Below are positions 920-63,311 of a stretch of 64,000 bases of DNA, piece after piece. A program made the position numbers and the translations under genes. Position 1 is the first letter of the stretch; each line of letters begins with the position of its first letter. Source of the DNA: an uncultured Acetobacteroides sp. (lineage in GTDB: Bacteria; Bacteroidota; Bacteroidia; Bacteroidales; ZOR0009); assembly GCF_963678165.1 (NCBI RefSeq), contig NZ_OY782755.1, positions 1,302,001 to 1,366,000 on the forward strand, in the 5' to 3' direction. The notes under the pieces were generated by a model. The model saw only the letters and a list, made by a program, of their open reading frames with translations, did not search any database and was not told the DNA's origin.

Positions 920-1259
920 TGCACGCCGCTAGTCTTCCAGAGCATGCATTTGACAATTCAGAGCATGTGGCTAGACTTTCAGAGCGTGCATTTGGCAATT
1001 CAGAACGTGTGGCTAGACTTTCAGAGCGTGCATTTGGCAATTCAGAACGTGTGGCTAGACTTCCAGAGCATGCATTTGGCAATTCCGAGCATGTGGCTAG
1101 TCTTTCCGAGCATGCATTTGGCGATTTAGAACATGTGGCTAGACATTCAGAGTGTGCATTTAGCAATTCAGAACGTGTGGCTAGACTTCCCGAGCATGCA
1201 TTTGGCAATTTAGAACATGCGGCTAAACATTCATAGAGTGCATTTGGCAGCTCCGCATG
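920..1259. repeat. Tandem array A1, 42-bp period, about 8 copies
   Basis: The start of the AGCATGCATTTG-like word recurs at 941, 983, 1025, 1067, 1109, 1151, 1193 and 1235, exactly 42 bp apart each time. Each unit consists of two related 21-bp halves (one containing GCATTTGGCAATT, the other GTGGCTAGACTTT), both starting AGCATG or AGCGTG. The array fills the space between two convergent genes and runs up to the stop codon of the HAD gene at 1260. Long frames stay open on both strands because 42 is a multiple of three. I do not regard them as genes. Confidence 0.95.
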
Positions 1260-1952
1260 CTACATGCCGCAAATAACATCTTTCGCCTCACGGATAGAGG
1301 AAACCTCGCGGAACTTGGGGCTCTCTACCTTAACGTCCACCTTGTCGAGGCTCCAGTGGGTGTGGAAGGGGATGTGAATGCCGTAGCCGCCGAGCTTGAG
1401 TACCGGAATGATGTCCGATTTGAGCGAGTTGCCCACGATCAGAAACTCCTCGGGCTGCACGTCGAGGTGGTTGAGCAGCTTGCTGTAGTCCTCGGGAGCC
1501 TTTTCCGACATGATTTCAACGTGGTGGAAGTATCCTTCCAGGCCCGACTTGCGCAGCTTGCGCTCCTGGTCGAGCAGGTCGCCCTTGGTGGCAACCACCA
1601 GGCGGTATTGGTCGTAGAGCGCCTTTAGGGTTTCCTCAACGCCGTCAATTAGCTCCACGTCGTGGTCCAGCTGCTCACGGCCCAGCTCGATGATGCGGGC
1701 GATGACTTTAGATTCGAGCGACCCGTTGGAGATGCGCAGAGCCGTCTCCATCATCGATAGGGTGAAGGCCTTTACGCCGTAGCCGTATAGGGCAATGTTG
1801 TTTGCTTCGGTAGTAAGCAGCTCGCGCTCTATCTCGTGCGGTTCCAGCAGGTGGTCGAGTAGCCCAAAAAACTTCATCTCAGTTTCCCGAAAGTAGGGCT
1901 CGTTAACCCACAGCGTATCGTCGGCATCAAAGGCGATTACTTTTAGCGGCAT
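1260..1952 (-). CDS. HAD-superfamily hydrolase
   Basis: 230-residue haloacid-dehalogenase-type phosphatase, probably acting on a small phosphorylated metabolite in the cytoplasm. Motif I is near the start (DADDTLW, nucleophile D9 and acid/base D11). Lysine and motif IV regions follow (SEKAPEDYSKL, GNSLKSDI). A helical cap lies between them, as in YjjG-like proteins. The start at 1952 is chosen because motif I follows at once and a TACCTTTA promoter element lies at 1971-1978. The longer frame to 2030 would start upstream of that promoter. Substrate not predictable. Confidence 0.85.
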   Translation of the reverse strand: MPLKVIAFDADDTLWVNEPYFRETEMKFFGLLDHLLEPHEIERELLTTEANNIALYGYGVKAFTLSMMETALRISNGSLESKVIARIIELGREQLDHDVELIDGVEETLKALYDQYRLVVATKGDLLDQERKLRKSGLEGYFHHVEIMSEKAPEDYSKLLNHLDVQPEEFLIVGNSLKSDIIPVLKLGGYGIHIPFHTHWSLDKVDVKVESPKFREVSSIREAKDVICGM

Positions 1953-1970
1953 GAATTTTAGATTTTGCCG

Positions 1971-1978
1971 TAAAGGTA
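1971..1978 (-). promoter_or_regulatory. -7 promoter element (TACCTTTA) of the HAD gene
   Basis: On the minus strand, TAnnTTTA about 20 nt upstream of the chosen start codon. It supports the start at 1952. Confidence 0.55.
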
Positions 1979-2118
1979 GGAAAAAGCGGGGTAGAGAGCA
2001 GGGTGTTTTTGGAGGTCTAGCAGCATTCAAGGCGGTTTGGCCTAAAGAAATCTTCGTTCGCTGGCCTTCGAAGCTCCCGGTTCGCTTCTTTCGGTAATGG
2101 CGAACTGCTTAGAATTCC

Positions 2119-2126
2119 TATCTTTG
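2119..2126 (+). promoter_or_regulatory. -7 promoter element (TATCTTTG) of ysxC
   Basis: TAnnTTTG match 16 nt before the ATG at 2143, implying a very short 5' leader. Confidence 0.65.
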
Positions 2127-2142
2127 CACAAAAATAAGCAGT

Positions 2143-2751
2143 ATGCAGGTAAAGAGTGCCATCTTTGTAAAGAGCGCCGAAAAGGCTTCGCAATGCCCCC
2201 CACAAACCCTCCCAGAGTTTGCCTTTATTGGGCGGTCGAATGTCGGAAAGTCGTCGCTAATCAACTACGTAGCCAACCAGAAGGGACTGGCCAAGGTGTC
2301 GGGCACGCCAGGTAAGACTAGGCTCATCAACTACTTTTTGATTAACGGAGGCTGGCACTTGGTAGACCTTCCGGGGTACGGCTACGCCAAGGCATCGAAG
2401 AGCGTTAAGCAGGGCTTCTCGGACATCATCACCGCCTACTTGGAGGCTCGCGATGAGCTAACCTGCCTTTTCGTGCTGATCGACTCGCGGCTCGAGCCTC
2501 AGAAGGTCGACCTCGATTTCATCACGCTTTTAGGAACCCACGGTATTCCGTTTGCCCTGGTGTTCACCAAAACCGATAAGATTGGGGTGGAGGTGCTAAA
2601 GGATAACGTGTCGCAGTATGCCAATACGCTGCTTCAAAGCTGGGAGGAGCTACCACCGATGTTCTACACGTCGAGCTCTAAGCGTAAGGGGGGCGATGAG
2701 TTGCTGGCCTATATCGATGAGTGCATAGAACTTGTTAACACAAATAAGTAG
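2143..2751 (+). CDS. ysxC: Ribosome-biogenesis GTPase YsxC/YihA (EngB)
   Basis: 202-residue GTPase of the YihA/YsxC (EngB) family, needed for assembly of the large ribosomal subunit. Visible G motifs: G1 GRSNVGKS (residues 30-37), G3 DLPGYG (75-80) and G4 TKTD (142-145). The GTPGKTR segment (54-60), the switch I region typical of the family, lies between G1 and G3. Length matches the family. It has its own promoter at 2119-2126 and lies 75 bp before prs, which has a separate promoter. Confidence 0.95.
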   Translation: MQVKSAIFVKSAEKASQCPPQTLPEFAFIGRSNVGKSSLINYVANQKGLAKVSGTPGKTRLINYFLINGGWHLVDLPGYGYAKASKSVKQGFSDIITAYLEARDELTCLFVLIDSRLEPQKVDLDFITLLGTHGIPFALVFTKTDKIGVEVLKDNVSQYANTLLQSWEELPPMFYTSSSKRKGGDELLAYIDECIELVNTNK

Positions 2752-2780
2752 CATCGGTCGCAAATTTTGCGCTCATTTTA

Positions 2781-2788
2781 TACCTTTG
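2781..2788 (+). promoter_or_regulatory. -7 promoter element (TACCTTTG) of prs
   Basis: TAnnTTTG match 38 nt upstream of the prs start. Confidence 0.6.
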
Positions 2789-2826
2789 CGCTGTCAAATT
2801 AAATACCACGACATAATCACCCTCCA

Positions 2827-3771
2827 ATGGCCCAAAAGCATACGATTAAGTTCTTCGCCGGAAGAAACTCACGTTATCTAGCCGAAAAGATTGCCAAAAG
2901 CTTCGGAATAGATCTGGGAAAATCTACCGTCACTGACTTTAGCGATGGCGAATTCCAACCATCCCTCGACGAGAGCGTCAGAGGGTGCACCGTGTTCATT
3001 ATTCAATCTACTTTTCCTCCAACCGACAACTTATTCGAGCTGTTCCTGATGATTGACGCTGCAAAGCGTGCTTCGGCACACCGCGTGGTGGCGGTAATGC
3101 CTTACTTCGGTTGGGCTCGTCAGGATCGTAAGGATAAGCCTCGCGTTTCGATTGGGGCCAAGCTGGTGGCCAACCTGCTTTGCGCATCTGGTGTAGATCG
3201 TATAATGACGATGGACCTGCACGCCGATCAAATTCAGGGCTTCTTTGATGTTCCTGTTGATCATCTTTATGCCAGCTCGATTTTTGTGCCTTACCTCAAG
3301 GCGCTCAACCTCGATGATCTTGCGGTTGCTGCACCCGATATGGGCGGAGCAAAGCGTGCGCATGCCTACTCGCGCTTCATGGATGCCTCTATGGTTATCT
3401 GCCACAAGCAGCGCGAAAAGGCCAACGTTGTAGGCCACATGACCGCGATTGGCGACGTGAAGGGTAAGAATGTGATCATCTTCGACGACATGATTGATAC
3501 CGCAGGTACCATTACCATGGCTGCCGATATGATGATGAGCATGGGGGCAAAGAGCGTTCGTGCCGTAGTAACCCATGCCGTACTTTCGGGGCCTGCCTAC
3601 GATCGTATCAACAAGTCGGCGCTGGTTGAGGTGTGCGTTACCGATACCATTCCGCTTCGTACCGATGTTGACACCTCGAAGATCAAGGTGCTCACCGTAG
3701 CCGACCACTTTGCCGATGTAATTGATAAGGTGTACAACTATAGGTCGATTAGCTCGACATTCATTCAGTAG
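2827..3771 (+). CDS. prs: Ribose-phosphate pyrophosphokinase (PRPP synthetase)
   Basis: 314-residue class I PRPP synthetase, transferring pyrophosphate from ATP to ribose 5-phosphate to supply purine, pyrimidine, histidine and NAD synthesis. Visible: N-terminal FFAGRNSRYLAEKIA, the DLHADQ segment (130-135), and the PRPP-binding loop DDMIDTAGT (about 220-228). The ATP-site region MPYFGWARQDRK (91-102) is also present. Length is normal. It is followed by a separate promoter for rplY. Confidence 0.97.
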   Translation: MAQKHTIKFFAGRNSRYLAEKIAKSFGIDLGKSTVTDFSDGEFQPSLDESVRGCTVFIIQSTFPPTDNLFELFLMIDAAKRASAHRVVAVMPYFGWARQDRKDKPRVSIGAKLVANLLCASGVDRIMTMDLHADQIQGFFDVPVDHLYASSIFVPYLKALNLDDLAVAAPDMGGAKRAHAYSRFMDASMVICHKQREKANVVGHMTAIGDVKGKNVIIFDDMIDTAGTITMAADMMMSMGAKSVRAVVTHAVLSGPAYDRINKSALVEVCVTDTIPLRTDVDTSKIKVLTVADHFADVIDKVYNYRSISSTFIQ

Positions 3772-3778
3772 TTTTTTC

Positions 3779-3786
3779 TATATTTG
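3779..3786 (+). promoter_or_regulatory. -7 promoter element (TATATTTG) of rplY
   Basis: TAnnTTTG directly after the prs stop. The implied leader (about 3793-3875) can form two short hairpins: CCTTC/GAAGG (3804-3824) and GAGCC/GGCTC (3834-3849). Confidence 0.65.
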
Positions 3787-3875
3787 CAATCTCAAAATAT
3801 CAGCCTTCTCTATTTGGTTGAAGGTGTGATGGGGAGCCGAGTTAGGCTCTGAGTAACACAATAAAACAAAGTAAC

Positions 3876-4481
3876 ATGAAAAACATCGAACTTAAGGGCG
3901 CTCTTCGTAGCGAACTTGGAAAGAAAGGTGCTAAGGACATTCGTCGTAATGCGCTTACTCCTTGCAACCTTTACGGTAATGGCGGAAACATCAACTTTAC
4001 CGTAGTTGAGAAGGAACTTAAGGACATTCTGTACACTCCAAACGCTTACATTATCGACCTAAACATCGATGGTAAGAGCGAGAAGGCTGTTATCCGCGAA
4101 ATTCAGTTTCACCCAGTTAGCGACAAGGTCCTTCACATCGACTTTTACCGTGTAACCGAGGATAAGCAAGTGGTAATCGAGATTCCCGTTAAGCTTAACG
4201 GTAGCTCGGAAGGTGTTAAGCAAGGTGGTAAGCTAACTCTTACAACTCGTAAGATTAAGGTTTCGGCTTTTGTTAAGGATCTACCTGATACGCTTGATAT
4301 CGACATCACCAACCTTGGCCTTGGAAAGACTGTAATGGTTGGCGAGCTAGATTATCCTAACCTTACCCTTCTTAACCCAAAGAGCACCGTGGTTTGTGCT
4401 GTTAAGATGACTCGTGCCGCTCGTGGTGCTGCTGCAGCTGCTGCTCTTGCCGCTCAACAAGCTGGTAAGAAGAAGAAATAG
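3876..4481 (+). CDS. rplY: 50S ribosomal protein bL25 (CTC form)
   Basis: 201-residue long (Ctc-type) bL25, which binds 5S rRNA. The N-terminal L25 domain (about 1-95) contains LRSELGKKGAKDIRRNALTP and VIREIQFHPVSDKVLHIDFY. The C-terminal Ctc beta domain (about 96-180) follows. The tail is Ala-rich and Lys-rich (ends QQAGKKKK), as is common in Bacteroidota. A leader of about 80 nt with two small hairpins precedes it, and a strong terminator follows at 4502-4536. Codon use is A/T-richer than in neighbours, fitting high expression. Confidence 0.95.
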   Translation: MKNIELKGALRSELGKKGAKDIRRNALTPCNLYGNGGNINFTVVEKELKDILYTPNAYIIDLNIDGKSEKAVIREIQFHPVSDKVLHIDFYRVTEDKQVVIEIPVKLNGSSEGVKQGGKLTLTTRKIKVSAFVKDLPDTLDIDITNLGLGKTVMVGELDYPNLTLLNPKSTVVCAVKMTRAARGAAAAAALAAQQAGKKKK

Positions 4482-4501
4482 TAATTAACCGCTATTCGAT
4501 A

Positions 4502-4536
4502 AAAGGCGTTAGGAGTATTATCCCCTAACGCCTTTC
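4502..4536 (+). terminator. Intrinsic terminator after rplY
   Basis: AAAGGCGTTAGG stem pairing with CCTAACGCCTTT, ending in a T-rich stretch. Confidence 0.85.
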
Positions 4537-4560
4537 TTCTATAGTATAACTGTTATAGCG

Positions 4561-5124
4561 TTGAAGTACCTAATTGTTGGCCTAGGGAATATTGGCGATG
4601 AGTACGTAAATACCCGCCATAACATAGGCTTTAAGGTGGTGGAGGCCTTTGCCAAGGCGGCCGATGCAACCTTTACCACCAAGCGATACGGCGATGTGGC
4701 CGAGGCGAAGCTTAAGGGGCGAACGTACATCCTGCTGAAACCATCGACCTACATGAACCTGAGCGGAAAGGCCGTGAGCTACTGGATGCAGGCCGAGAAG
4801 ATTCCGCTCGAAAACGTGTTTGTTATTGTTGACGATCTTGCGCTGCCCATGGGCTCCATCCGCATCCGCGAAAAGGGAAGCGATGGCGGCCATAACGGAC
4901 TGAAGCATATCAACGAGATACTGGGAACGCAAGCTTACGCCCGCCTGCGCTTCGGCATTGGTGATGCGTTTGCCAAGGGCAAGCAGGTGGACTACGTGCT
5001 GGGCCGCTGGACCGAGGAGGAGGAGAAGCTCCTTCCGGCGCTCATCGACCATAGCGTTGAGGCCATCAAGGGCTTTGGCACCATTGGGCTGGCGCGAACG
5101 ATGAACTTTTACAACAAAAAGTAG
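4561..5124 (+). CDS. pth: Peptidyl-tRNA hydrolase
   Basis: 187-residue bacterial Pth, releasing peptides from peptidyl-tRNA drop-off products. Catalytic H20 (NTRHNIGF), N65 (STYMNLSG), D90-D91 (VIVDDL) and H110-N111 (GGHNGL) are all present. The N-terminus KYLIVGLGN fits the family only if translation starts at the TTG at 4561; no in-frame ATG lies nearby. First gene of a compact unit with the S4 protein (5-nt gap) and the DUF4924 protein (ATGA overlap). Confidence 0.95.
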
Positions 5125-5129
5125 CCGAT

Positions 5130-5543
5130 ATGGCAGAAGTAACCTCTGTACGAATCGACAAGTGGCTATGGTCCATCCGCGCCTTTAAGACGCGCACGGA
5201 TGCGGCCGATGCCTGCAAGCTGGGGCGCGTAACCATCAACGGGGGGCAGGCCAAGGCTTCGCGCGACGTGAAGGTGAACGACATCATCGGGGTGAAGAAG
5301 ATGCCCGTGGTGTACACCTTTAAGGTGCTGGCGCTTGTTGCCAACCGGCAGCCGGCCAAGAGCGTGTACCTCTACGCCGAGAACCTTACCCCCGAGGAGG
5401 AGCTCGAAAAGCTGACGATGAATCGCACCGTGATCTTCGTGCAGCGCGATAGGGGAACCGGGCGCCCAACCAAGCGCGATCGCCGCGAGATTGACGACCT
5501 AATGGAAAATTACTACTGGGGCAGGGAGGGCTCCGACGAATGA
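5130..5543 (+). CDS. S4-domain RNA-binding protein (Hsp15-like)
   Basis: 137 residues. The S4 RNA-binding domain is at about 8-70 (VRIDKWLWSIRAFKTRTDA, CKLGRVTINGGQAK), followed by a basic tail. Domain order and length resemble Hsp15/HslR, which recycles stalled 50S subunits carrying peptidyl-tRNA. That fits co-transcription with pth five bases upstream. Its stop overlaps the start of the next gene (ATGA). Confidence 0.85.
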   Translation: MAEVTSVRIDKWLWSIRAFKTRTDAADACKLGRVTINGGQAKASRDVKVNDIIGVKKMPVVYTFKVLALVANRQPAKSVYLYAENLTPEEELEKLTMNRTVIFVQRDRGTGRPTKRDRREIDDLMENYYWGREGSDE

Positions 5544-6091
5544 AGCTATCATCGCAAAAGCGCAAGGAGAATGTGGCGGAGTACATCCTCTTCATGTGGC
5601 AGCTCACCGACCTGCTCCGCTCGATTCAATTCGACGAGGGTCGCATCCGCGAGCTGCTGATTGATCCCCTAGGCCTGCCCGAAGCGGAGGCCGTGGCCGA
5701 GCTGCAGTGGTACCGCGACTACTGCCAGATTATCCGCGAGGAGGGCAAGGAGCAGCGCGGGTTTCCGTCCATCACCCTTTACCTTATCGGCGAGCTGCAC
5801 GACTTCCACCAGCGCCTGCTAAAGGAGCCCGGCGAGGATACCTACCGCATGCTGACCTTTAACGCCACACCGGCCCTTGTCTCCTTCAGGGAGAAGGTGC
5901 CCCAGCCGCTGGCCAACGACATGGAGTACTGCTTCTACGCGCTCTACTCCAAGCTGCTCTTGGGCATGCAGAAGCAGGAGATCTCGCAGCAAACGGCCGA
6001 ATCGTTTGCCGAAATCGCCAAAATGGTGGGCTACCTGGCCAAAAAGTTTGGCCAGTTCGAAAGAGGGGAGTTCTCGTTTAAGGAAGATTAG
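5540..6091 (+). CDS. DUF4924 family protein
   Basis: 183-residue cytoplasmic, mostly helical protein. It is recognised as a Bacteroidota DUF4924 protein by the segments EYILFMWQLTDLLRSIQFDE near the start and GELHDFHQRLLKEPGEDTYR in the middle. No catalytic motif is visible and its function is unknown. Translational coupling to the S4 protein (ATGA) and proximity to pth suggest a role linked to translation quality control, but this is inference from position only. Confidence 0.7.
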   Translation: MKLSSQKRKENVAEYILFMWQLTDLLRSIQFDEGRIRELLIDPLGLPEAEAVAELQWYRDYCQIIREEGKEQRGFPSITLYLIGELHDFHQRLLKEPGEDTYRMLTFNATPALVSFREKVPQPLANDMEYCFYALYSKLLLGMQKQEISQQTAESFAEIAKMVGYLAKKFGQFERGEFSFKED

Positions 6092-6099
6092 TCTCTTTG

Positions 6100-6329
6100 A
6101 GGATGTTTTTTGCTACTGTTGCCGCTAGGTAGTAGAATTGCTAAGGATTTTCTGCTATTGTTGCTGCAATATTGTAGAATTGCTAAGGATTTTCTACTAC
6201 TGTTGCTGCAATATTGTAGAATTACTAATGCTTTTCTACTACTGTTGTTGCAATGTAGTAGAATTACAAAGGTGTTTCTGCTATTGTTGCTGCAATGTTG
6301 TAGAATTACAGCTGCTTTTCCACTACCGA
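6100..6329. repeat. Tandem array A2, 42-bp period, about 5.5 copies
   Basis: The word GTAGAATT recurs at 6132, 6174, 6216, 6258 and 6300, exactly 42 bp apart. Each unit also carries TGTTGCTGCAA, and CAATATTG, a small palindrome, occurs in two of them. The sequence is unrelated to array A1 though the period is identical. It lies between convergent genes, just after the DUF4924 stop and before a bidirectional terminator. Confidence 0.95.
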
Positions 6330-6362
6330 GCACGTAATTACGAGCTTCAAAAGATAAGGACC

Positions 6363-6409
6363 AAAAAAAAAGCGCGGGCTACCCGGAAGGTGGCTCGCGC
6401 TTTTCTTTT
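6363..6409 (-). terminator. Bidirectional hairpin terminator
   Basis: AAAGCGCGGGCTACC pairs with GGTGGCTCGCGCTTTT around a short loop. An A-run on the left and T-run on the right let it serve both convergent genes. Confidence 0.8.
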
Positions 6410-6432
6410 ATCTTTTATGATGTGAAGCTGGG

Positions 6433-7128: not shown

Positions 7129-7153
7129 TAGAATTGTGTTGAAGTGGGTTATA

Positions 7154-8125: not shown

Positions 8126-8284
8126 AGTTTGAATTCCCTTATAAACCCGAACGGTTAAATCTTCAGCTTTAAAATAGTGAGCAATTATACTAAAAAAAGA
8201 GATTAATTTTCTTGTTGCAGCTGACGAATGTCGCTTTTTTAAGAGAAAAAGGCAGAGAAATTTCTTCTCCACCTTTTTTGATTG

Positions 8285-9274: not shown

Positions 9275-9290
9275 TTTGCGTAGTAAATTA

Positions 9291-10022: not shown

Positions 10023-10024
10023 CC

Positions 10025-10744: not shown

Positions 10745-11141
10745 CTGCTGGGGAAGTATACCCAAACCAAGAGACCCCAAGGGTACACTACTGGGGAAGC
10801 ATACTCAACCGCGAGCCCCCGAGGGTACACTGCAGGGGAAGTATACCCAGACCGTGAGCCCCGGAGGGTACACTACTGGGGAAGTATACTCAACCGAGAG
10901 CCTCCGAGGGTACACTGCTGGGGAAGTATACTCAACCGAGAGCCCTGGAGGGTACGCTACTGGGAAAGTATACTCGACCGGGAGTCCTGGAGGGTACACT
11001 GCTGGGGAAGTATACTCAACCGAGAGCCCTGGAGGGTACGCTACTGGGAAAGTATACTCGACCGGGAGTCCTGGAGGATACACTGCTGGGGAAGTATACC
11101 AAAACCGAGAGACCCCAAGGGTACGCTGCTGGGGAAGGTAC
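10745..11141. repeat. Tandem array A3, 42/43-bp period, about 10 copies
   Basis: The word GGGGAAGTATAC or GGGAAAGTATAC starts at 10750, 10793, 10835, 10878, 10920, 10962, 11004, 11046, 11088 and 11131: six steps of 42 and three of 43. Each unit holds AGTATAC(T), an 8-bp palindrome in most copies, and GGGTACACTGCT. Units 10920/11004 and 10962/11046 alternate as near-identical pairs, showing an 84-bp duplication. It fills the convergent spacer from the stop of the exonuclease gene to 23 bp before the stop of the hydrolase gene, leaving no obvious terminator. Confidence 0.95.
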
Positions 11142-25103: not shown

Positions 25104-25326
25104 AGCTGCTAGGTGTAAAGTTGGCCTACTTTAGCAGTTGGCGGACTTTACACGTGTAAAGTCAATCGAAGCAAAGTTTTTTATCACTTTACAGGTGTAA
25201 AGTTGAACGATTATTGGTTTTTGAAAACATTACACGTGTAAAGTTGATGGTTTGGCAATTTTGGTAGACTTTACACGTGTAAAGTCGGTTTCCTATAAGG
25301 TTTAGGCGACTTTACACTTGTGATGT
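25104..25326. repeat. Tandem array A7, 41-bp period, palindromic core
   Basis: An 18-bp palindrome (ACTTTACAC/GTGTAAAGT) starts at 25145, 25186, 25227, 25268 and 25309, with a half copy aligned at 25104: every step is 41 bp. The first full copy and the copy at 25268 are perfect; others have one or a few changes. The 23-bp stretches between are A/T-rich and differ from each other. It sits between the korB terminator and a downstream gene in the same direction. The pattern of repeated palindrome and variable spacer resembles a regulator-binding array more than a CRISPR. Confidence 0.95.
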
Positions 25327-25547
25327 TGTCCTTTTGTTATTAGCGGGAGGATTTTATGCCTGCTATTGTCGTCGAAAAAGAATCTTATACCTTTTCCCGG
25401 TGCAAAAATGTGCTATCTCTTTTTTGTGGAGGCTTTCTTCGGCGTGTAGAGGTGATAAAAAGTAAAAATAGAAGAAAGACTGTGCTAAGTTTATCTTAAT
25501 AGCTTTATATTAGTCTCTAGAAGGTTAATACCCCTAAAAACATCAGC

Positions 25548-33019: not shown

Positions 33020-33398
33020 ATATCGGACATGTGGAAACCGATATCTACCGACTAGTTGAAGGCATCGTACATGTGGGTGGGGGCATCGGACGGATGGAAA
33101 TTGGCATCGGACGACTAGGTGGAAGCATCGTACATGTGAAAATCGATATCTACCGACTAGTTGAAGGCATCGTATATGTGGATGGGAGCATCGGATGGGT
33201 GGAAATTGGCATCGGACGACTAGGTGGAAGCATCGTACATGTGGAAATTGATATCTACCGACTAGGTGAAGGTATCGTACATGTGGATGGGAGCATCGGA
33301 CGGGTAGAAATTGATATCGGACGACTAGGTGGAAGCATCGTACATGTGGAAATTAATATCTACCGACTAGGTGAAGGCATCGGACGGGTAGGAGCGGG
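33020..33398. repeat. Modular array A4, 21-bp units in 105-bp superrepeats
   Basis: Eighteen consecutive 21-bp units, mostly starting (C/T)ATCG or TATCTAC. Five unit types recur in fixed order: F (CATCGTACATGTGGAAATT), B (TATCTACCGACTAGGTG), C (CATCGTACATGTGGATGG), D (CATCGGACGGGTGG) and E (CATCGGACGACTAGGTGG). The order F-B-C-D-E gives a 105-bp period repeated about 3.5 times. It follows the VOC terminator in a convergent spacer. A related array lies at 48.1 kb. A 128-codon frame stays open on the plus strand but has no convincing start. Confidence 0.95.
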
Positions 33399-48104: not shown

Positions 48105-48480
48105 GAGAGGCGCGTTTGAAACTCGGGTGTGCGGGGAATCGGTATCGGACGACTAGTTGGAGGTATCGGACATGTGGAAATGGATATCTACCGGGTGGGT
48201 GGAGGCATCGTACATGTGGGTGGAAGCATCGGACGGGTGGATATCGGTATCGGACGACTAGTTGGAGGTATCGTACATGTGGAAATTGGCATCTACCTAG
48301 TGGGTGGAGGCACGAAGAGACGCGTTTGAAACGCGTCTGTACGAGTAATTGATATCGGACGACTAGTTGGAGGTATCGTACATGTGGAAATCGATATCTA
48401 CCGGGTGGGTGAAGGCTGGTAGAGCCGCGTTTCAAACGCGGCTGCACAGAAAATCGGCATCTGCCGGGGAGATGATAGTG
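48105..48480. repeat. Modular array A5, 21-bp units with palindrome blocks
   Basis: Units of 21 bp start at 48143, 48164, 48185, 48206, 48227, 48248, 48269, 48290, then 48353, 48374, 48395 and 48458, all on one 21-bp phase. Types follow array A4 (33 kb): E-F-B-C-D-E-F-B, then a 42-bp block, then E-F-B, then another 42-bp block. Each 42-bp block contains a 21-bp perfect palindrome (48318-48338 and 48423-48443, 105 bp apart) and occupies the place of the C-D pair. A decayed palindrome lies at 48105-48128. The array separates the C1 peptidase start from the tilS 3' end. Confidence 0.92.
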
Positions 48481-53869: not shown

Positions 53870-53898
53870 ATTAACAGCCTTGATTATAAAATTAGGTA

Positions 53899-55572: not shown

Positions 55573-55595
55573 TTTTAATATTTGTAGACGTCAAT

Positions 55596-56300: not shown

Positions 56301-56345
56301 GACTGTTATTTGTTTTTATTCGAGCCATAAATATATAAAAATGGC

Positions 56346-56378
56346 AAAAGGGGAACGATTATTTCCCCCTTTTTTTGT
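56346..56378 (-). terminator. Terminator after proS
   Basis: AAAGGGGGAA and TTCCCCTTTT arms on the minus strand, followed by a T-rich tail; G-T adjustments in the stem are minor. Confidence 0.7.
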
Positions 56379-56394
56379 GTTTTATACAACTTGA

Positions 56395-57870
56395 CTAGTA
56401 AGATCTAGCAATAATCACGCGTTGTTTGGATGGTTTTCCTGTAACCATACACTTGCCTTCTTCCATTTCGCCTTCTAGCGGAATGCAACGAATGGTTGCT
56501 TTGGTTTCCTCCTTGATGAGTTCTTCGGTTTCAGCAGTTCCATCCCAGTGGCATAGAAAGAAACCTCCCTTTTCATCGAGAAGACGCTTAAATTCATCGT
56601 AGTTGTCAACCTTGGTGGTCATTTCCTTACGATGGTTAAGAGCCTTATTGTAGATGTTCTGCTGGATGTTGGTAAGAAGTTGCTCGATATAGTCTGCAAT
56701 TCCTTCTTGCGAAAGAAGTTGCTTTTCGAGTGTGTCGCGACGGGCAATTTCGATGGTGCCGTTTTGGAAGTCGCGAGGGCCCATTGCAACGCGAACAGGT
56801 ACGCCCTTTAGTTCGTATTCTGCAAACTTGAATCCTGGCTTAAAGTTGTCTCTATCATCAAGTTTAACCGAAATGCCTTTTGCTTCAAGTTGCTTCTTGA
56901 TCTCCTTTAGCTTGCCGCTGATGCTTTCAAGTTCTTCGGTTCCCTTGTATATAGGTACCATTACAACTTGGATTGGCGCCAACTTTGGAGGTAGAACCAA
57001 ACCGTTATCGTCGGAGTGGCTCATGATTAGTGCACCCATTAGACGGGTTGATACGCCCCAAGAGGTTGCCCATACGTAATCGAGTTTACCTTCCTTATTG
57101 GTGAACTGTACGTCGAAAGCTTTTGCAAAGTTTTGACCCAAGAAGTGAGAGGTTCCCGATTGAAGTGCCTTGCCATCCTGCATCATTGCCTCAATGGTGT
57201 AGGTTTCAACGGCTCCTGCAAAACGTTCGGTTGGCGATTTACGGCCAATGGTTACCGGCACGGCCATCCAGTTCTCCGCAAAATCGGCGTAAACATTAAT
57301 CATTCTCTCAGTTTCTTCTAATGCCTCCTGTGAAGTTGCATGTGCAGTATGGCCTTCTTGCCAAAGGAATTCGGCGGTGCGGAGGAAGAGACGAGTTCTC
57401 ATCTCCCAGCGTACCACGTTGGCCCATTGGTTGACGAGAATTGGAAGATCGCGGTACGACTGAATCCAATTCTTATAGGTGTTCCAAATAATGGTTTCCG
57501 ATGTAGGGCGAACGATGAGTTCTTCTTCTAGCTTGGCTTCAGGGTCAACAACAACACCTTTGCCATTTGGATCGTTCTTTAGGCGGTAGTGGGTTACTAC
57601 GGCACATTCTTTAGCAAATCCCTCAACATGGGCTGCTTCCTTGCTAAGAAACGACTTCGGGATGAAGAGCGGGAAGTATGCATTTTCGTGGCCTGTATCC
57701 TTAAACATCTGGTCGAGGGTGCGCTGCATCTTTTCCCAGATGGCGTAACCGTAGGGTTTAATCACCATACAGCCCCTGACTGCCGAATTCTCAGCTAAGT
57801 TGGCTTTTAGTACAATATCATTGTACCAAAGCGAATAATTCTCCGAGCGTGGAGTTACTTCCTTTGCCAT
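56395..57870 (-). CDS. proS: Prolyl-tRNA synthetase (archaeal/eukaryotic type)
   Basis: 491-residue class II synthetase of the short type that lacks the bacterial editing insertion. Motif 2 region [20 protein letters not shown], the [15 protein letters not shown] segment, anticodon-binding domain near 290-390 (VVMVPIYKG), and a C-terminal zinc-like domain ending IIARSY with the terminal Tyr conserved in this type. It charges tRNA-Pro. Monocistronic, divergent from the following lipoprotein gene. Confidence 0.96.
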
Positions 57871-57894
57871 GCGACTTTGGTATGAAATTTGCTT

Positions 57895-57902
57895 TATTTT
57901 TG
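57895..57902 (+). promoter_or_regulatory. -7 promoter element (TATTTTTG)
   Basis: TAnnTTTG with TTTG at 57876-57879 upstream; precedes the lipoprotein gene by about 65 nt. Confidence 0.5.
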
Positions 57903-57966
57903 TAAGATTTGTGAACGCAAAATAAATAAATAAAATCGGTTTCTCATAAAACGCTGGAGGGTCATT

Positions 57967-59268
57967 ATGAAAGCTTTAAAATTATTCACATTGCTGGTTC
58001 CTATAGCACTTCTTGGGGTGTCTTGTGGTACGAGTTCGAGGCTAGGCGGTAGTTCTGCTGGCGACGATATCTACTACAACCCAACACAAGACGCTAAGGA
58101 ACAAGTGGTAAGCGCTTCGAATGGTAAGCGGGTGCCTCTTGATAAGTCGTATAACGATTTAGTTAATGAAACCAATAGAACTTTGGCGGATACCATTTAT
58201 GTTGCTTCTGAATCCGATTCGACAGGCAATCCTTACCAGGATGTTTTAGCCGATTCCTACGAAAAAGCAAAGCGTAATCGAGAGTTGGGATATAAAGATC
58301 CATGGTATGGCATGCCATCGAGTGCTGCTTATTCGCAAAATATGTGGTATGCTACAGCTTACGATCCTGCATTCTATAACGTCATCGTAATGGGGAATAC
58401 GATATGGGCAGAGCCTAAGTACATCTCCTCGATGTTTGGCTATCCATACTACAACTCGTACGTTAACTTTGGACCTTACTACAGCCCATACAGAAATTCA
58501 TGGAACATGAGTTTTGGTGTTGGTTGGGGCTGGGGATTGAGCACCAACTGGGGTTGGGGTTATGATTCTTACTGGGATTATCCTTATTACGGCAACTCCT
58601 GGGGTGGATATGGACATCATTATCATGATGGCTACTACTCGGGGAGAGGGTATCGTGATGTTGTTTACGGCCCACGCGATGGTGGCATGCGTTACGGAAC
58701 GCCAAGTGTTCGCAACTATCCGTCTTCGAGAGGGTATAGCTATTCAAATACCAGCAATCCATCGAGGGTGAGCCGTGATGGTAATTCTGATGTGATCCGT
58801 TCGAGCAGGGGTAGTTCTTCTGTAAGGCGAGATGATTCGCGTACCTATCAGAGTGGAACATCCGCTCGCGATTACCAATCGGTTACGACGCGACGTTCGG
58901 TAATTACTACACCTACCCGTCAGCCTAGCAGCAGCAGAGAGGCGTATACGCCTACCTATACCTATAGCAGGCCAACGCGCTCTGGTCAGCCTGTATTTAA
59001 TGAGGGAAGCAGTTCTGGAGCATCAAGGACGTACGAGCGTCGCAACTCGACAGCCGTTGTGCCAAGATCGGAGAGCAGCAGCTCTTACGACAATAGCCGT
59101 AGCTACCCATCGCGCAGCAATAACGACAGCAATAGCCCATCGCGTAGCAGCAGCTACAACTCGGGTAGCAGCTATTCGTCGCCATCAAGAAGCTCTTCGT
59201 CTAGCTCTAGTAGTTCATCGTCGAGTAGCCGTTCGGAAAGTTCGGGTAGCAGCCGTGGACGTAGGTAA
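57967..59268 (+). CDS. Lipoprotein with Ser/Arg-rich low-complexity tail
   Basis: 433 residues. Lipoprotein signal ([16 protein letters not shown]). A middle region rich in Tyr, Trp and Gly ([39 protein letters not shown]) is followed by a C-terminal third dominated by Ser and Arg ([15 protein letters not shown], long Ser runs). No catalytic domain recognised. Probably a surface or periplasmic structural protein. The FadL-type porin gene starts 57 bp downstream in the same direction, so they may be co-expressed. Confidence 0.7.
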
Positions 59269-59325
59269 TGCTTAATAACAATGATTACAACCAACCCACT
59301 TAAATAACAACTAATACGTGTGATT

Positions 59326-60915
59326 ATGAGACTTCGCGCAATACTACTAGGGGGAACCTGCAGCCTGATGGCTGTAGGCGCCCTTGCCCAAAGCGAAACT
59401 GATGTGCTCCGCTTTTCGCAAACTTACATGAAGGGATCGGCAAGGTTTACCGCCATGGGTGGTGCCTTTGGTGCGCTAGGGGGCGATATGTCCTCGTTTA
59501 TGATAAACCCAGCAGGGGTAGGTGTTTACCGCTCTTCGGAGTTTACTTTCTCTACTGGAATTCTTAACAGCAACCAAAAAATAGATTATCGTGGCGATAG
59601 GTCTTTTGATGGACATACGTCGGTAAATGTCGGTAATGCAGGTCTTGTTTTGAATTTTTTCAATAACTCTAATAGCGAACTTCGGAATTTCAATCTCGGT
59701 ATTTCCTACAACAGACTGAATGATTTTAATCAGAATACCTTCTTGTCTGGTGTTAATAACGAAAATTCTATTACCGACTACTTTGCAGAAAAATCCTATG
59801 GAATAAAGCAGGTTGATCTGTTAAGCCAAAATCCATTTGATTCGAACTTGCCTTGGAACTCTATTCTTGCTTGGAAAACGTATTTAATGGATCCTGCTAG
59901 TTCAGATAACAATAATCAGTTTTATCTTACTCCATTGGCTCGAACAAGGTATGCCAAGGATCCATATTATGCGCCATACGCAAGAGATATTGACAAGAAA
60001 GGGCTGAATGATGCCGTTTTTCAGGATCAATGGGAAGAGGTTCGTGGTTTTAATGATGTAGTGAATATTGCTTTTGGCGGAAATTTGATGGATGTGGTTT
60101 ACGTTGGAGGTTCGCTAAATATCACAAACATCAATTACCATTCGACAAAGAACTACCACGAACAAGCAGATAAGAACAACCTGTCAAATTTCAATGAACT
60201 GAATTACGAAGAGATTTACAACGCTTATGGTACAGGAGTATCGTTAGGCTTAGGAATGATCCTTAAGCCAATTCAAGAGATTCGTATAGGGGTTTCCTAC
60301 CAATCGCCAACTTGGAATTCGATTGATGAGGACTATTCGGCATATATGAATTCAACCTTTTTGAATGTTAACAATGGTTTTGCAGAGTACGATACCCCAA
60401 TCAATACCTTTAGCTATCGTATCTCATCTCCACAACGTCTTACGGGGAGCCTTGGATTTATTCTTGGAAACTACGGCATAATTAGTGCTGATGTTGATTG
60501 GGTAAACTATGCTGGAATGAGAATTCATGGTTCGAATGATTATCGAACACTTTTTAATAATATTAATAGTGCCATTGATAATAGCTACCGCAATACAATA
60601 AACGCAAGAGTAGGTGGTGAACTTAAATTGGATAAACTTGCCTTTCGTGCAGGTTATCAGTACTACCAAAATCCTTACAAAAAGGATTTCATCAATTCCG
60701 ATAATGCTACAAACGTTTACTCTGCTGGTTTTGGCTACCGCACTCGTTCGTTCTTCTTCGACTTTGCGTATAGCCTTATGACGATGAAAAATGCTTATTC
60801 GTTATACGACTACTACTATAAGGATGCCAACTCAACGGTTGACATCTACTCGGGCACTGCTACGTCCAACATCAACCGTAATTCGTACATTGTGACGCTA
60901 GGGTTTAAGTTCTAG
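59326..60915 (+). CDS. OmpP1/FadL-type outer-membrane transport protein
   Basis: 529 residues. Signal peptide (MRLRAILLGGTCSLMAVGALAQ), then ARFTAMGGAFGALGGDMSSFM and INPAGVGVYRSSEFTFS, the N-terminal plug-like pattern of FadL/TodX porins, and barrel strands through the end (SYIVTLGFKF). It would allow hydrophobic compounds across the outer membrane; the substrate is unknown. A GTG two codons upstream is an alternative start. A terminator shared with the convergent wbqC-like gene follows. Confidence 0.85.
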   Translation: MRLRAILLGGTCSLMAVGALAQSETDVLRFSQTYMKGSARFTAMGGAFGALGGDMSSFMINPAGVGVYRSSEFTFSTGILNSNQKIDYRGDRSFDGHTSVNVGNAGLVLNFFNNSNSELRNFNLGISYNRLNDFNQNTFLSGVNNENSITDYFAEKSYGIKQVDLLSQNPFDSNLPWNSILAWKTYLMDPASSDNNNQFYLTPLARTRYAKDPYYAPYARDIDKKGLNDAVFQDQWEEVRGFNDVVNIAFGGNLMDVVYVGGSLNITNINYHSTKNYHEQADKNNLSNFNELNYEEIYNAYGTGVSLGLGMILKPIQEIRIGVSYQSPTWNSIDEDYSAYMNSTFLNVNNGFAEYDTPINTFSYRISSPQRLTGSLGFILGNYGIISADVDWVNYAGMRIHGSNDYRTLFNNINSAIDNSYRNTINARVGGELKLDKLAFRAGYQYYQNPYKKDFINSDNATNVYSAGFGYRTRSFFFDFAYSLMTMKNAYSLYDYYYKDANSTVDIYSGTATSNINRNSYIVTLGFKF

Positions 60916-60934
60916 GTTCATCAGAATATAAAAT

Positions 60935-60967
60935 GAAAGGCGGGTGTTGCTACTCGCCTTTTTTTAT
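60935..60967. terminator. Bidirectional terminator overlapping the WbqC stop
   Basis: AAGGCG...CGCCTT stem with T-run; the WbqC stop codon (60950-60952) lies within the loop. Confidence 0.8.
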
Positions 60968-61588
60968 GCTTTGCTCTAGGATGCTCTTGGCCATTGGACC
61001 TTCGTTGAAGAGGAGGTCGAGGATGGAGAGGTTGGGGGTGAAGCCGTGGCGGTCGGCGAATACCTGGTAGTACTCCACTGGGGCGAAGTGCGGGTCGGGC
61101 TGCTGCTGGCTCTCCTTGGGCGATATGGCGTACCTCAGGTCGATCTTGTTCTCGATTACTTTGTCGTAGCTGGTGGTGTAGCCGATGCTGGGCGCTATGG
61201 AGAGCGACTTTAGGATTGTCTCTAGGATTTGTTGGTTGAAGTCGAACAGGCGCTCGTAGCGGTTTTCGAAGAAGGGCATGAAGTCGTCGATGTAGTAGTC
61301 GTAGAAGGGCGAGCTCTTGTAGGCCGATTCGATGGACTTGAAGTGCTGCTTCTGCCAGGGCTTGTTGTAGTCGAGCTGTACTTCGGCGATGGGCATCTTC
61401 TCTCCATGCCACTTTACTACGGGTACGGTGAGCGCCATGGGACCGTTGGCGGCAAGGATGCTGCAGCGATTGCGGTAGCTCTGCTTGAGGTAGCTCTCGT
61501 GGGCTTCGATGGTTACGCTGCCGGCTATCAGCTTGCAGAGGTACTGTACGGGTGGAAAGTAGGCGGTAGATAGGACTACGGGTTGCAT
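60950..61588 (-). CDS. WbqC-family protein
   Basis: 212 residues. Family-typical segments: VVLSTAYFPPVQYLCKLIAG at the start, QSYRNRCSILAANGPMALTV, PWQKQHFKSIESAYKSSPFY, DDFMPFF, and NLSILDLLFNEGP. WbqC-like proteins accompany surface-polysaccharide or aminosugar loci and may act as amidases or acyltransferases, but no reaction is established. Start at 61588 fits the TACTTTTG promoter element at 61607-61614. Confidence 0.88.
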   Translation of the reverse strand: MQPVVLSTAYFPPVQYLCKLIAGSVTIEAHESYLKQSYRNRCSILAANGPMALTVPVVKWHGEKMPIAEVQLDYNKPWQKQHFKSIESAYKSSPFYDYYIDDFMPFFENRYERLFDFNQQILETILKSLSIAPSIGYTTSYDKVIENKIDLRYAISPKESQQQPDPHFAPVEYYQVFADRHGFTPNLSILDLLFNEGPMAKSILEQSIKKGE

Positions 61589-61606
61589 TGTCGTTGTTTT
61601 GTCGGG

Positions 61607-61614
61607 CAAAAGTA
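61607..61614 (-). promoter_or_regulatory. -7 promoter element (TACTTTTG) of the wbqC-like gene
   Basis: TAnnTTTG on the minus strand 19 nt upstream of the ATG at 61588; rules out the longer frame to 61690. Confidence 0.65.
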
Positions 61615-61758
61615 GCAATCCGCAGGCAAAATTGAAAGGCACAAAAAAGGGCCGGACGTTTCTCCTGTCGACATATCGTACCTCGGGCATCTCCCTTGGT
61701 CGATTCGGCGGGCTAAACCTTCGGCCCCTGCTATTATTGGTGCTTGCCGCTGCTCCTG

Positions 61759-62319
61759 CTATAGGGGCATGGCCTTGTAGACGTTGGAATCCTCAAGAGG
61801 AACGATGTTACCCTTGTAGGTGATTCGTCGGCCCCAGGTGTTGGGCGAGATGTACGCCTCGCCGCGGTTGGAGTTGGCCGTTAGGGTGATGAAGATCTCG
61901 GCGTTGATGCCCACGCCAACCACCATGAACCGTACGCTGACGTTTCCATGCTTATCGGTTTCGAGCTTATACCCGCTAATGCTACCTTCGACGGTGATGC
62001 CACCCAGCCCGTTGTAGCCAGCTCGGTAGGGCGAGGCCAGCTGCACGGTTGACTTCTCTTTGTCCATCATAACAAAGTTGGTGGTGCTGTTGACGAAGTA
62101 GAGGCTGCCCCGCTGCCCCTGTATGGTGTAGGCTTCGAGTACCCAGGTTTGCGCGGATAGGGCTTCTACCGCTTTGGCGTAGCTGGTGGAGTCGAGCTGC
62201 TGCTGCTCCTTCTTGCGCAGCTCCTTTCGCTCTTGAGGGGTTAGCTCCCTGAAATCCTGCGCTAGCAGCCCCGCAAAGGGGAGAACGATCAGTGCTAGCA
62301 GCGTTGCTATTCTTTTCAT
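61759..62319 (-). CDS. Exported DUF4251 protein
   Basis: 186 residues. Signal peptide (MKRIATLLALIVLPFAGLLAQ), a charged helix (PQERKELRKKEQQQLDS), then the DUF4251 beta-rich domain (WVLEAYTIQGQRGSLYFVNS, TNFVMMDKEKSTVQL, GGITVEGSISGYKLE, EIFITLTANSNRGEAYI). Bacteroidota-restricted; function unknown; likely periplasmic or attached to the inner face of the outer membrane. Start 62319 gives the signal peptide. Confidence 0.82.
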   Translation of the reverse strand: MKRIATLLALIVLPFAGLLAQDFRELTPQERKELRKKEQQQLDSTSYAKAVEALSAQTWVLEAYTIQGQRGSLYFVNSTTNFVMMDKEKSTVQLASPYRAGYNGLGGITVEGSISGYKLETDKHGNVSVRFMVVGVGINAEIFITLTANSNRGEAYISPNTWGRRITYKGNIVPLEDSNVYKAMPL

Positions 62320-62445
62320 AAGGGGAAACTCTTCGATTAATATGGGTGAATCGTCCAACTTTAATATAGGTGGGGACAGGCTACCGCCTATCCCCTAGAT
62401 GCTCCTGTTAGTGCTGATCGTTTTTGGCAGCCATAAAATGGCCTT

Positions 62446-62994
62446 TTACGTGAAAGGGAACCAGCGGTCGACATCGAGCGGCTCGGAGGTCTTGCTGAGG
62501 TTGGCAACCTGGGCAATGATCACGTAGGTGTAGATTTCCTCGCCCTGCGCATCCTTGCTGGTGGCTACCCGGTTTACGTAGTACGTCAACGGCCGCTCGT
62601 TGCGCCCGATGAGGAAGGCCTCCATCTGCCTGAAGAAGCTGCGCAGCTGCGTTTTCTTTCCTTCGAAAACCCGGCTGCGGAAGGTGCCCGACAGCTCGAT
62701 GTAGTCCTTATCGGCTACCGGCTTGGTGACGGATAGGAGCACCTCTTCTTTCCAGGGGGATACGGGGTGGCGCAGCAGCAGCGCTTCGTTATCGTCGGGG
62801 ATGATGTTCATCTTGTAGGCCTTGTGGAGCAGCGATTGGTTGACGGTCTCAAGGTTGTCGACAATGGGGAAGTGCATGACTTCCGACACGGTGGTGCGGA
62901 TGAAGGGCTTGTGGTTCCACACAAACTCTACATCGTCCCAGCTCTCGCGGTTGAACTGGGGATTCAGCATGATGTTGTTACCTTCTACTCGCAT
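62446..62994 (-). CDS. Hypothetical cytoplasmic protein
   Basis: 182 residues, no signal peptide or membrane segment. Mixed alpha/beta with conserved-looking aromatic segments (NRESWDDVEFVWNHKPFIRT, LLRHPVSPWKEEVLLSV, YIELSGTFRSRVFEGKKT). No known family recognised. An in-frame ATG at 62970 is a possible alternative start. It stands alone; its upstream side carries array A6. Confidence 0.55.
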   Translation of the reverse strand: MRVEGNNIMLNPQFNRESWDDVEFVWNHKPFIRTTVSEVMHFPIVDNLETVNQSLLHKAYKMNIIPDDNEALLLRHPVSPWKEEVLLSVTKPVADKDYIELSGTFRSRVFEGKKTQLRSFFRQMEAFLIGRNERPLTYYVNRVATSKDAQGEEIYTYVIIAQVANLSKTSEPLDVDRWFPFT

Positions 62995-63099
62995 GGCGTT
63001 GATTTTTTATGTTTCGTTTTACGTAAAACGCACACGGTTAGCAGCTAAAATGTGCTAGAAGATGCGCTTGGCGGTGATTTTACCGCAGGTAGAGGCGTT

Positions 63100-63311
63100 C
63101 CTCTGGGGATGTTGGGCGCCTTGTATATGGTACAAAGGTGTCCCCGGAGTTCCGTTGGGTGCCTTGTATATGGTACAAAGGCTTCGCCGGAGTTCCGCTG
63201 GATGGTTTGTATATGGTACAAAGGCTTCGCCGGAGTTCCGTTGGATGGTTTGTATATGGTACAAAGGTGTCCCCGGAGTTCCGTTGGCCGATTTGTATAT
63301 GGTACAAAGGG
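63100..63311. repeat. Tandem array A6, 43-bp period, 5 copies
   Basis: TTGTATATGGTACAAAGG starts at 63121, 63164, 63207, 63250 and 63293: every step is 43 bp. The unit also contains CCGGAGTTCCGTTGG. TTGTA and TACAA form a small inverted repeat in each unit. Because 43 is not a multiple of three, the units cycle through frames and cannot encode a peptide repeat. It lies between two minus-strand genes, upstream of the hypothetical gene and beyond the terminator of hcp. Confidence 0.95.

What the first reader, a model, noticed from the sequence alone, without database searches (positions are those of the whole stretch)
920..63311. Seven unrelated intergenic arrays share a 41-43 bp period
Tandem arrays at about 0.92, 6.10, 10.75, 25.10, 33.02, 48.14 and 63.10 kb have periods of 42, 42, 42/43, 41, 21/42/105, 21/105 and 43 bp. 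Apart from the 33/48-kb pair the unit sequences do not resemble each other, yet the length is nearly constant and close to four helical turns. Most units carry a small palindrome (GCATGC, CAATATTG, AGTATACT, ACTTTACAC/GTGTAAAGT, GATATC, TTGTA-N5-TACAA). All seven are intergenic and touch at least one gene 3' end; four lie between convergent genes, none between divergent ones. Slippage alone does not predict one shared length at independent loci. A length-measuring process (a protein filament, a polymerase-associated duplication machine, or DNA-phased binding) would. Period 41 and 43 exclude peptide coding as the common cause.
Basis: partly seen in the sequence, partly recalled or inferred. Interest (0 to 1): 0.8.

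Follow-up and report, generated by a model that had tools for sequence, protein, structure and literature searches.

The report
Intergenic repeats locked to 21-bp steps
In this bacterial genus many gaps between genes carry tandem repeats whose sequences mostly differ but whose spacing is nearly always about two or four turns of the DNA helix, which suggests that spacing and symmetry matter more than sequence and that the arrays may be landing platforms for a DNA-binding protein.

Summary
The seven arrays are real, and the shared length is a property of the genome. In a 20% sample of this 4.3-Mb Bacteroidales chromosome, 61 of 271 intergenic spans of at least 150 bp are strongly periodic. Of these, 60 have period 21/22, 40-43 or 63; shuffled spans give none. 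Two same-genus species share it; 80 other Bacteroidota loci show only a weak trace. The link to gene 3' ends fails: divergent spacers hold arrays as often as convergent ones. Coding, REP/RAYT elements and helical phase alone do not fit. The module is about 21 bp, two helical turns. Many 42-bp units are doubled direct 21-mers. Other 40-43-bp units often hold two inverted repeats half a unit apart (10 of 34; shuffles 1.6; 0 of 300 sets reach it). Sequence turns over while spacing stays; at one ortholog pair the stem is partly replaced at the same centre. Best explanation: rotationally phased, often dyad-symmetric sites for a DNA-binding or architectural protein, homogenised by unequal exchange. 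The protein is unknown, and compensatory changes within arrays are not in excess. A length-measuring duplication process is not excluded.

The parts
928..1249 (.). Array, 42-bp unit made of two similar 21-bp modules, 7.7 copies, convergent spacer
   Evidence: half-unit identity 24 of 42; the G002 ortholog is a 21-bp array sharing TGCATTT and the spacing
6106..6309 (.). Array, 42-bp unit, 4.9 copies, convergent spacer
   Evidence: the G002 spacer holds a cryptic 21-bp array that TRF misses and that has no BLAST match in this spacer (G002 to G000; the query the other way included flanks and hit 70 bp); G001 spacer shows none by eye
10745..11137 (.). Array, 42-bp unit, 9.3 copies, starts right after a stop codon; dyad AGTATACT
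   Evidence: the G002 spacer is about 75 bp without an array; one diverged relative at G000:2937124-2937495
25104..25349 (.). Palindrome array: 18-bp ACTTTACACGTGTAAAGT every 41 bp, 23-bp spacers poorly related
   Evidence: same palindrome at 41-bp spacing at G000:448.8 kb, core identity 0.78 and spacer identity 0.30 between the loci
33022..33391 (.). Array of 21-bp modules in 42/63/105-bp higher-order units, convergent spacer
   Evidence: relatives at 48.1 kb and G000:3609595-3609906; G002 ortholog 84 bp by TRF, 42 by lag scan
48110..48444 (.). Array of 21-bp modules, 105-bp higher order, same family as 33 kb, tandem spacer
   Evidence: G002 ortholog 42/126 bp, with a TAG in the frame that is open at 33 kb, read by eye
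63121..63310 (.). Array, 43-bp unit, 4.4 copies, stem CTTTGTA-N5-TACAAAG, second stem half a unit away
   Evidence: G002 aligns only through the first part of the array

Best explanation
These are members of a genus-wide class of intergenic arrays (about 300 in this genome by extrapolation from the 20% sample) built on a module of about 21 bp, two helical turns. In one form the module is a direct 21-mer, often doubled to 42. In the other, two different inverted repeats alternate with centres about 20-21.5 bp apart, giving 40-43-bp units. Shown: the period, its sharpness, the half-unit dyads in a good part of the second form, and turnover of sequence with spacing kept. Inferred: the arrays are rows of rotationally phased sites, often dyad-symmetric, on double-stranded DNA. 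A dimeric or polymerising DNA-binding (nucleoid-type) protein would occupy them one unit per two turns on one face of the helix. Unequal exchange homogenises each array, the motif drifts with it, and selection keeps spacing and symmetry. The role (for example insulating neighbouring transcription units or organising the nucleoid) is inferred only from their place in longer spacers.
For: 60 of 61 periodic spacers at 21/22, 40-43 or 63; in the first 400-kb sample lag 42 gives 1468 hits against a median of 3 per lag. No best period of 31-32 or 52-53. Best internal lag is 21 in 23 of 39 42-bp units from the three genomes. Among 34 non-redundant units without direct half similarity (three genomes pooled), 15 have two stems and 10 have them half a unit apart; shuffles give 1.56 (0 of 300 sets reach 10) and non-array intergenic 42-mers 2.29 (0 of 200). 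Folding signal is about equal on both strands (mean z -1.16 and -1.07), which suits double-stranded DNA. Families keep their own spacing at several loci in two species (42: three G000 loci and one G002; 41: two and two). For the 25.1-kb palindrome, core identity between its two loci is 0.78 and spacer identity 0.30 with no filter on copies. At the 1369-kb ortholog pair the main stem is partly replaced at the same centre: 2 pairs changed on both sides, 3 kept, 0 broken. 7 of 11 anchored G000 arrays face a periodic array in G002 and 8 of 10 anchored G002 arrays face one in G000. Gaps per substitution 0.037 in arrays, 0.124 in 28 orthologous non-array spacers.
Against: No protein is identified and no k-mer is common to all units. 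Within arrays compensatory changes are not in excess (17 against 18.8) and broken pairs exceed the permutation null (207 against 186.9). Over the 9 related unit pairs that have a main stem, pairs changed on both sides (5) are no more than broken ones (5; 49 kept), with no null run. Only 19 of 65 units have a stem unusual at p<=0.05. Direct 21-mer arrays show no purine/pyrimidine dyad. The low gap rate is partly ascertainment, since ungapped arrays are found more easily, and a cruder ortholog comparison showed many gaps. 4 of 11 arrays have no counterpart in the sister species.
Confidence: 0.43

Rival explanations
1. A length-measuring duplication process (replication, repair or recombination enzyme with a 21- or 42-nt step) creates arrays from any sequence; they then decay and homogenise neutrally.
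For: Unit sequences mostly unrelated (57 arrays form 46 clusters); species-specific arrays in otherwise syntenic spacers; arrays almost only in spacers, where duplication is tolerated; no excess of compensatory changes within arrays.
Against: Does not predict inverted repeats half a unit apart, stem replacement at a fixed centre, or a conserved core with randomised spacers at fixed spacing. No single-copy precursor seen by eye at four empty sites.
Confidence: 0.21
2. Inherited period: arrays descend by dispersal from a few ancestral satellites; sequences diverged beyond recognition and the period is a relic without function.
For: Small dispersed families with the same core and period; equal copy number (5) at two G000 loci and one G002 locus; some shared words, such as CGGA in 20 of 50 units against 8.3 expected.
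Against: If indels fell at the control rate of 0.124 per substitution, saturated units should have drifted well outside 40-44 (my estimate, not simulated). Homology of family members stops within about 20 bp of the array in the 6 pairs examined.
Confidence: 0.18
3. The arrays act as RNA: transcribed rows of small hairpins that affect 3'-end processing, termination or translation.
For: 42% of tiled units fold better than shuffles (z below -1.64) on at least one strand; a CCCC loop is conserved in one family.
Against: Folding signal is about equal on both strands, arrays are as common between divergent genes, compensatory changes within arrays are not in excess, and there is no Rfam match in the window.
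Confidence: 0.1
4. REP/BIME-like elements spread by IS200-type (RAYT) transposases.
For: Intergenic palindromic repeats in rows; 7 Y1_Tnp matches in G000, 6 over the cut-off, and 3 in G002.
Against: G001 has arrays but 0 Y1_Tnp matches; G004 has 6 matches and no array in the one 20-kb stretch scanned. Most arrays have their own sequence.
Confidence: 0.03
5. Coding repeats: 21 bp is seven codons.
For: 28 of 35 exact-21n arrays have a stop-free frame over the array; one array, L132:1846, looks codon-like on its own (24 of 35 single differences synonymous).
Against: Over all 35, no codon-position bias (257/220/256) and synonymous fraction 0.30 in the best frame against 0.28 in the others; many arrays have period 40, 41 or 43.
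Confidence: 0.03

Closest known systems
BrickBuilt MITE/minisatellite of Porphyromonas gingivalis (PMC4596501; abstract and section list seen)
   Same: Bacteroidales; intergenic tandem arrays at many loci
   Different: One 23-nt sequence, 19 times in one strain, with leader and tail; here mostly different units with one shared spacing, and no common leader or tail found
REP/BIME elements and RAYTs (PMC3733652, abstract start and passages; PMC2817692, search listing only)
   Same: Intergenic, palindromic, clustered; BIMEs serve as protein binding sites according to the listed abstract start
   Different: REP families share a tagged sequence and are linked to RAYTs; here sequences differ and one species has no Y1_Tnp match
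Prokaryotic satellites (PMC6749651; parts 1 and 2 of 5 read, plus passages)
   Same: Non-coding tandem repeats over 30 bp scattered in a genome; unrelated long satellites within one genome are reported there (Methanobrevibacter ruminantium, Clostridioides difficile), and transposed families in Leptospira
   Different: Repeat lengths vary there and multiples of 3 predominate; the densest bacterial replicon in its Table 1 has 23 per Mb (Methanosarcina up to 89) under its criteria; here about 57-70 per Mb under mine, with one dominant period regardless of sequence
Two-turn-spaced protein arrays such as plasmid iterons and ParR centromeres (recalled, not searched)
   Same: Repeated sites about 20-22 bp apart on one helix face
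   Different: One locus and one cognate protein there; here a large number of chromosomal loci with different motifs

Membership tests
BrickBuilt MITE | 23-nt unit of one sequence at many loci | tested here: not met
   Periods 21/40-43; 57 arrays fall into 46 sequence clusters
BrickBuilt MITE | Leader and tail with small inverted-repeat ends | tested here: inconclusive
   Homology stops within about 20 bp of the array in the 6 family pairs examined; one member of one family has GAGGC...GCCTC at its ends, others only one side, read by eye
REP/BIME with RAYT | Y1_Tnp (RAYT) gene in the genome | tested here: not met
   0 matches in G001, which has arrays; 7 in G000 and 3 in G002
REP/BIME with RAYT | Shared tagged palindrome genome-wide | tested here: not met
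   No 4- to 6-mer common to the 50 units compared; the best 4-mer by z-score, CGGA, is in 20
CRISPR array | Identical repeats separated by unique spacers of constant length | tested here: inconclusive
   The 25.1-kb array fits loosely (18-bp core, 23-bp spacers); most arrays looked at conserve the whole unit
CRISPR array | Adjacent cas genes | tested here: not met
   Immediate neighbours of the 25.1-kb array are a TPP-enzyme domain gene and a DUF6261 gene; no wider search for cas genes was made
Coding satellite | Codon-phase constraint on substitutions | tested here: not met
   257/220/256 by codon position over 35 arrays; L132:1846 is a possible single exception
Phased protein-binding array | Sites at integral helical turns | tested here: met
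   21/22, 40-43 and 63 bp, a few at 44; dyads half a unit apart in 10 of 34 units
Phased protein-binding array | A cognate protein occupying each module | not testable with these tools
   Needs pull-down or footprinting

The most novel reading that the evidence does not exclude
A chromosome-wide, sequence-independent 21-bp lattice: a previously undescribed bacterial architectural protein reads spacing and dyad symmetry rather than one motif, so that hundreds of intergenic arrays can change sequence freely while keeping two-turn phasing, as insulators or nucleoid anchors between transcription units.
Probability: 0.2. Interest if true: 0.92.

Novelty: new variant of a known kind. Interest (0 to 1): 0.72.

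Why it matters
Bacterial satellites are usually explained as slippage products, coding repeats or mobile elements with one sequence. Here the constant is geometry: period and, in many units, dyad spacing persist while sequence does not. That makes a testable claim that a non-coding bacterial element can be selected for helical spacing, and it offers a genus in which a spacing-reading protein, or a length-measuring mutational process, could be isolated.

Tried and rejected
Coding for heptapeptides: rejected for the class by lack of codon-position bias, although single arrays look peptide-like (L132:1846; the 1466-kb array by eye). REP/RAYT: rejected, G001 has no Y1_Tnp match. RNA hairpin covariation within arrays: no excess, and more broken pairs than the null. 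Universal motif: none; CGGA (20 of 50 units, z 4.5), CTGCAG (4 of 50) and CGGAAG (6 of 50) exceed the 95% range of random sets, while AAATGC (10 of 50) does not. Helical phase alone (intrinsic curvature): best periods of 31-32 and 52-53 are absent; AA/TT power is raised at p/4, about 10.5 bp (z 5.0), but more at p/6 (z 6.8), so it is not specific. Purine/pyrimidine dyads: none in direct arrays, slight in the others (7.89 against 7.61, sd 0.09). Column conservation: uneven in 15 of 43 arrays and clustered in 9 of 43 at p<=0.05, so a core-plus-spacer pattern is clear only in a minority. Origin or terminus bias: counts look scattered along the chromosome by eye, not tested. Indel counting between orthologous arrays was set aside because the units hardly align and gaps were cheap; it showed 55 gaps for 438 substitutions, which on its face is against the low gap rate. 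Rfam on the window and a plasmid search with one array gave nothing.

Literature: ten searches, three of which returned no paper, listed no title that reports a 21/42-bp period class; the library holds open-licence papers only, and I opened three papers.

Caveats: gene calls are my own codon-model calls, so contexts carry some error. In one search copies of two families were admitted only if at least 70% of the core matched, which inflates core identity; the 25.1-kb family was not filtered. Array counts depend on the thresholds of each call. Units pool the G000 sample with 160 kb each of G001 and G002. Two of the nine multi-member clusters are neighbouring pieces in one spacer.
Full report
SETTING. 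The window is positions 1302001-1366000 of a closed 4.30-Mb chromosome; two unnamed same-genus genomes, G001 and G002, are held. By one protein the nearest listed relatives are Bacteroidales and other Bacteroidota at about 60% identity or less, among them Perlabentimonas gracilis; very near records may be left out of that list. I could not name the organism.

OBSERVATION. TRF finds six of the seven arrays with the stated periods. The seventh (25.1 kb) is a palindrome array: ACTTTACACGTGTAAAGT every 41 bp with poorly related 23-bp spacers. A sample of the genome (window plus 40 stretches of 20 kb, 864 kb) gives 49 arrays with a 40-43-bp TRF row, 18 more with 20-22-bp or longer 21n rows, and 10 with other periods. 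A TRF-independent scan of lags 10-70 in 271 intergenic spans of at least 150 bp finds 61 with z>=5: period 42 in 29, 41 in 13, 21 in 8, 43 in 4, 22 in 3, 63 in 2, 40 in 1 and 18 in 1; shuffled spans give none and gene interiors 9 of 578. The 20 spans with z between 3.5 and 5 have mixed periods. A contiguous 304 kb of G000 and 340 kb of G002 give 24 and 22 arrays; all but one (period 15) lie at 21, 40-44 or 63, with two at 44 in each.

DISTRIBUTION. Autocorrelation peaks at 42, 84, 126, 168, 41 and 21 in G000, and at 42 and its multiples in G002 and G001. In 80 other Bacteroidota loci (1.4 Mb) there is a weaker signal: lag 21 has 537 and lag 42 has 379 hits against a median of 31, but lag 14 leads; TRF finds 74 arrays, 0 with base period 40-43 and 7 with 21; a window scan finds 28 places, 8 of them at 21 or 42, 4 of these outside or only half inside open frames. 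Fifteen stretches from other families of the order (207 kb) show one place at 42 and one at 23, plus two infinite scores in records under 1.3 kb that I did not examine. So the class is dense in this genus and sparse elsewhere, not strictly exclusive.

CONTEXT. The 3'-end idea fails genome-wide. The 49 arrays lie in convergent (13 in 27.1 kb), divergent (18 in 34.9 kb) and tandem (16 in 77.6 kb) spacers, 1 in a gene and 1 at an edge. Arrays sit a median of 220 bp from gene starts and 123 bp from gene ends, in spacers with medians of 555-637 bp, against 83-236 bp for spacers without arrays. They favour G+C-rich neighbourhoods: coding G+C has a median of 0.536 in 53 four-kb bins with an array and 0.485 in 161 without (p = 1e-10; without the window p = 1e-8). 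One reading is that AT-rich, possibly acquired, regions lack them.

ANATOMY. Two forms appear. In the first the 42-bp unit is a doubled direct 21-mer: best internal lag 21 in 23 of 39 42-bp units. In the second, units of 40-43 bp have no direct half similarity but tend to carry two inverted repeats. In a non-redundant set of 34 such units 15 have two stems of at least 4 bp and 10 of these have centres half a unit apart; shuffled units give 1.56 (0 of 300 sets reach 10) and non-array intergenic 42-mers 2.29 (0 of 200). Tiled units fold better than shuffles about equally on both strands. So both forms rest on a step of about 21 bp. No best period of 31-32 or 52-53 occurs, so helical phase alone is not enough.

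EVOLUTION. Fifty-seven arrays fall into 46 sequence clusters; the reversed-sequence control has no pairs. Families are small: the 10.7-kb array has one other locus, the 33-kb array two, the 25.1-kb palindrome one. Spacing is a family trait: 42 for TTGCATCTGCAGATGCAA at three G000 loci and one G002 locus (besides four single matches with 1 or 2 mismatches, and one control match in G001), and 41 for the CCCC-loop family at two and two loci. Between loci, core and spacer identities are 0.84-0.89 and 0.32-0.53 in the first family and 0.75-0.82 and 0.50-0.66 in the second, copies being admitted by core match; for the 25.1-kb palindrome they are 0.78 and 0.30 without a filter. In G000/G002 synteny 11 G000 arrays could be anchored (13 could not): 7 face a periodic array and 4 face short spacers without one; of 10 anchored G002 arrays (12 not) 8 face an array in G000. 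At 25.1 kb the facing arrays do not match in sequence, and at 6.1 kb only the query that included flanks finds a hit. At 1369 kb the two species share half the unit, while the other half holds CCCGA-GATG-TCGGG in one and CTTCCGTA-CTAC-TACGGAAG in the other, at the same centre of the aligned unit: 2 pairs changed on both sides, 3 kept, 0 broken; a weaker overlapping stem is mostly broken. Of 14 related pairs set up, 3 gave no unit and 2 no stem; over the other 9 main stems 49 pairs are kept, 5 changed on both sides and 5 broken. Empty sites show no target duplication or single-copy precursor by eye. Self-alignment gives 0.037 gaps per substitution in arrays against 0.124 in 28 orthologous non-array spacers; arrays without gaps are easier to detect, so this is supportive only, and one search showed many gaps.

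AGAINST. Within arrays compensatory changes are not in excess (17 against 18.8) and broken pairs are (207 against 186.9, sd 6.6); only 19 of 65 units have an unusually long stem; direct arrays show no purine/pyrimidine dyad; no k-mer is common to all. The protein, if any, is not identified.

MECHANISM. Shown: period, sharpness, half-unit dyads in part of the units, turnover with spacing kept. Inferred: selection on rotational spacing and symmetry, through a protein that binds one module per two turns; unequal exchange as the homogeniser; a role between transcription units. The strongest rival is a duplication process with a fixed step; it explains unrelated units but not half-unit dyads. Neutral inheritance of a period is unlikely at the control indel rate, though I did not simulate it. 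RNA function is weakened by strand symmetry and divergent placement. Coding is excluded for the class, and RAYT-driven REPs by G001.

KNOWN WORK. A survey of 119 bacteria lists at most 23 satellites per Mb for a bacterial replicon and up to 89 in Methanosarcina, with lengths that are multiples of 3 predominating (PMC6749651, parts 1 and 2 read); its criteria differ from mine. BrickBuilt (PMC4596501, abstract) is the nearest Bacteroidales case but has one sequence and 23 bp. My ten searches listed no report of a 21/42-bp class among open-licence papers. I rate this a new variant of a known kind, with a 0.2 chance that it is something categorically new.

Noticed in passing
all G000 stretches sampled: Arrays favour G+C-rich neighbourhoods: coding G+C median 0.536 in 53 four-kb bins with an array, 0.485 in 161 without (p = 1e-10); in the window all seven array-bearing 4-kb rows are richer than all nine others.
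   Followed up: partly
L072 (Draconibacterium mangrovi), about 3440-3720: Six direct TGCGAG-like motifs (one step of 20 bp, four of 21) followed by six inverted CTCGCA motifs at five steps of 21 bp, spacers unrelated: a two-armed 21-bp array in another Bacteroidota lineage (read by eye).
   Followed up: no
L033 (Prevotellaceae MAG), about 2950-3140: An intergenic 21-bp array (ACGCCGGCGCGA core, seven copies) next to a short heptamer tract (TTCACYC).
   Followed up: no
G002 spacer orthologous to window about 1953-2142: Two adjacent heptamer arrays (GAGTAGG and CACATCC types), absent in G000.
   Followed up: no
L096:11887-12842: Four copies of a 228-bp tandem repeat, unlike the 21n class; not checked for coding.
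   Followed up: no
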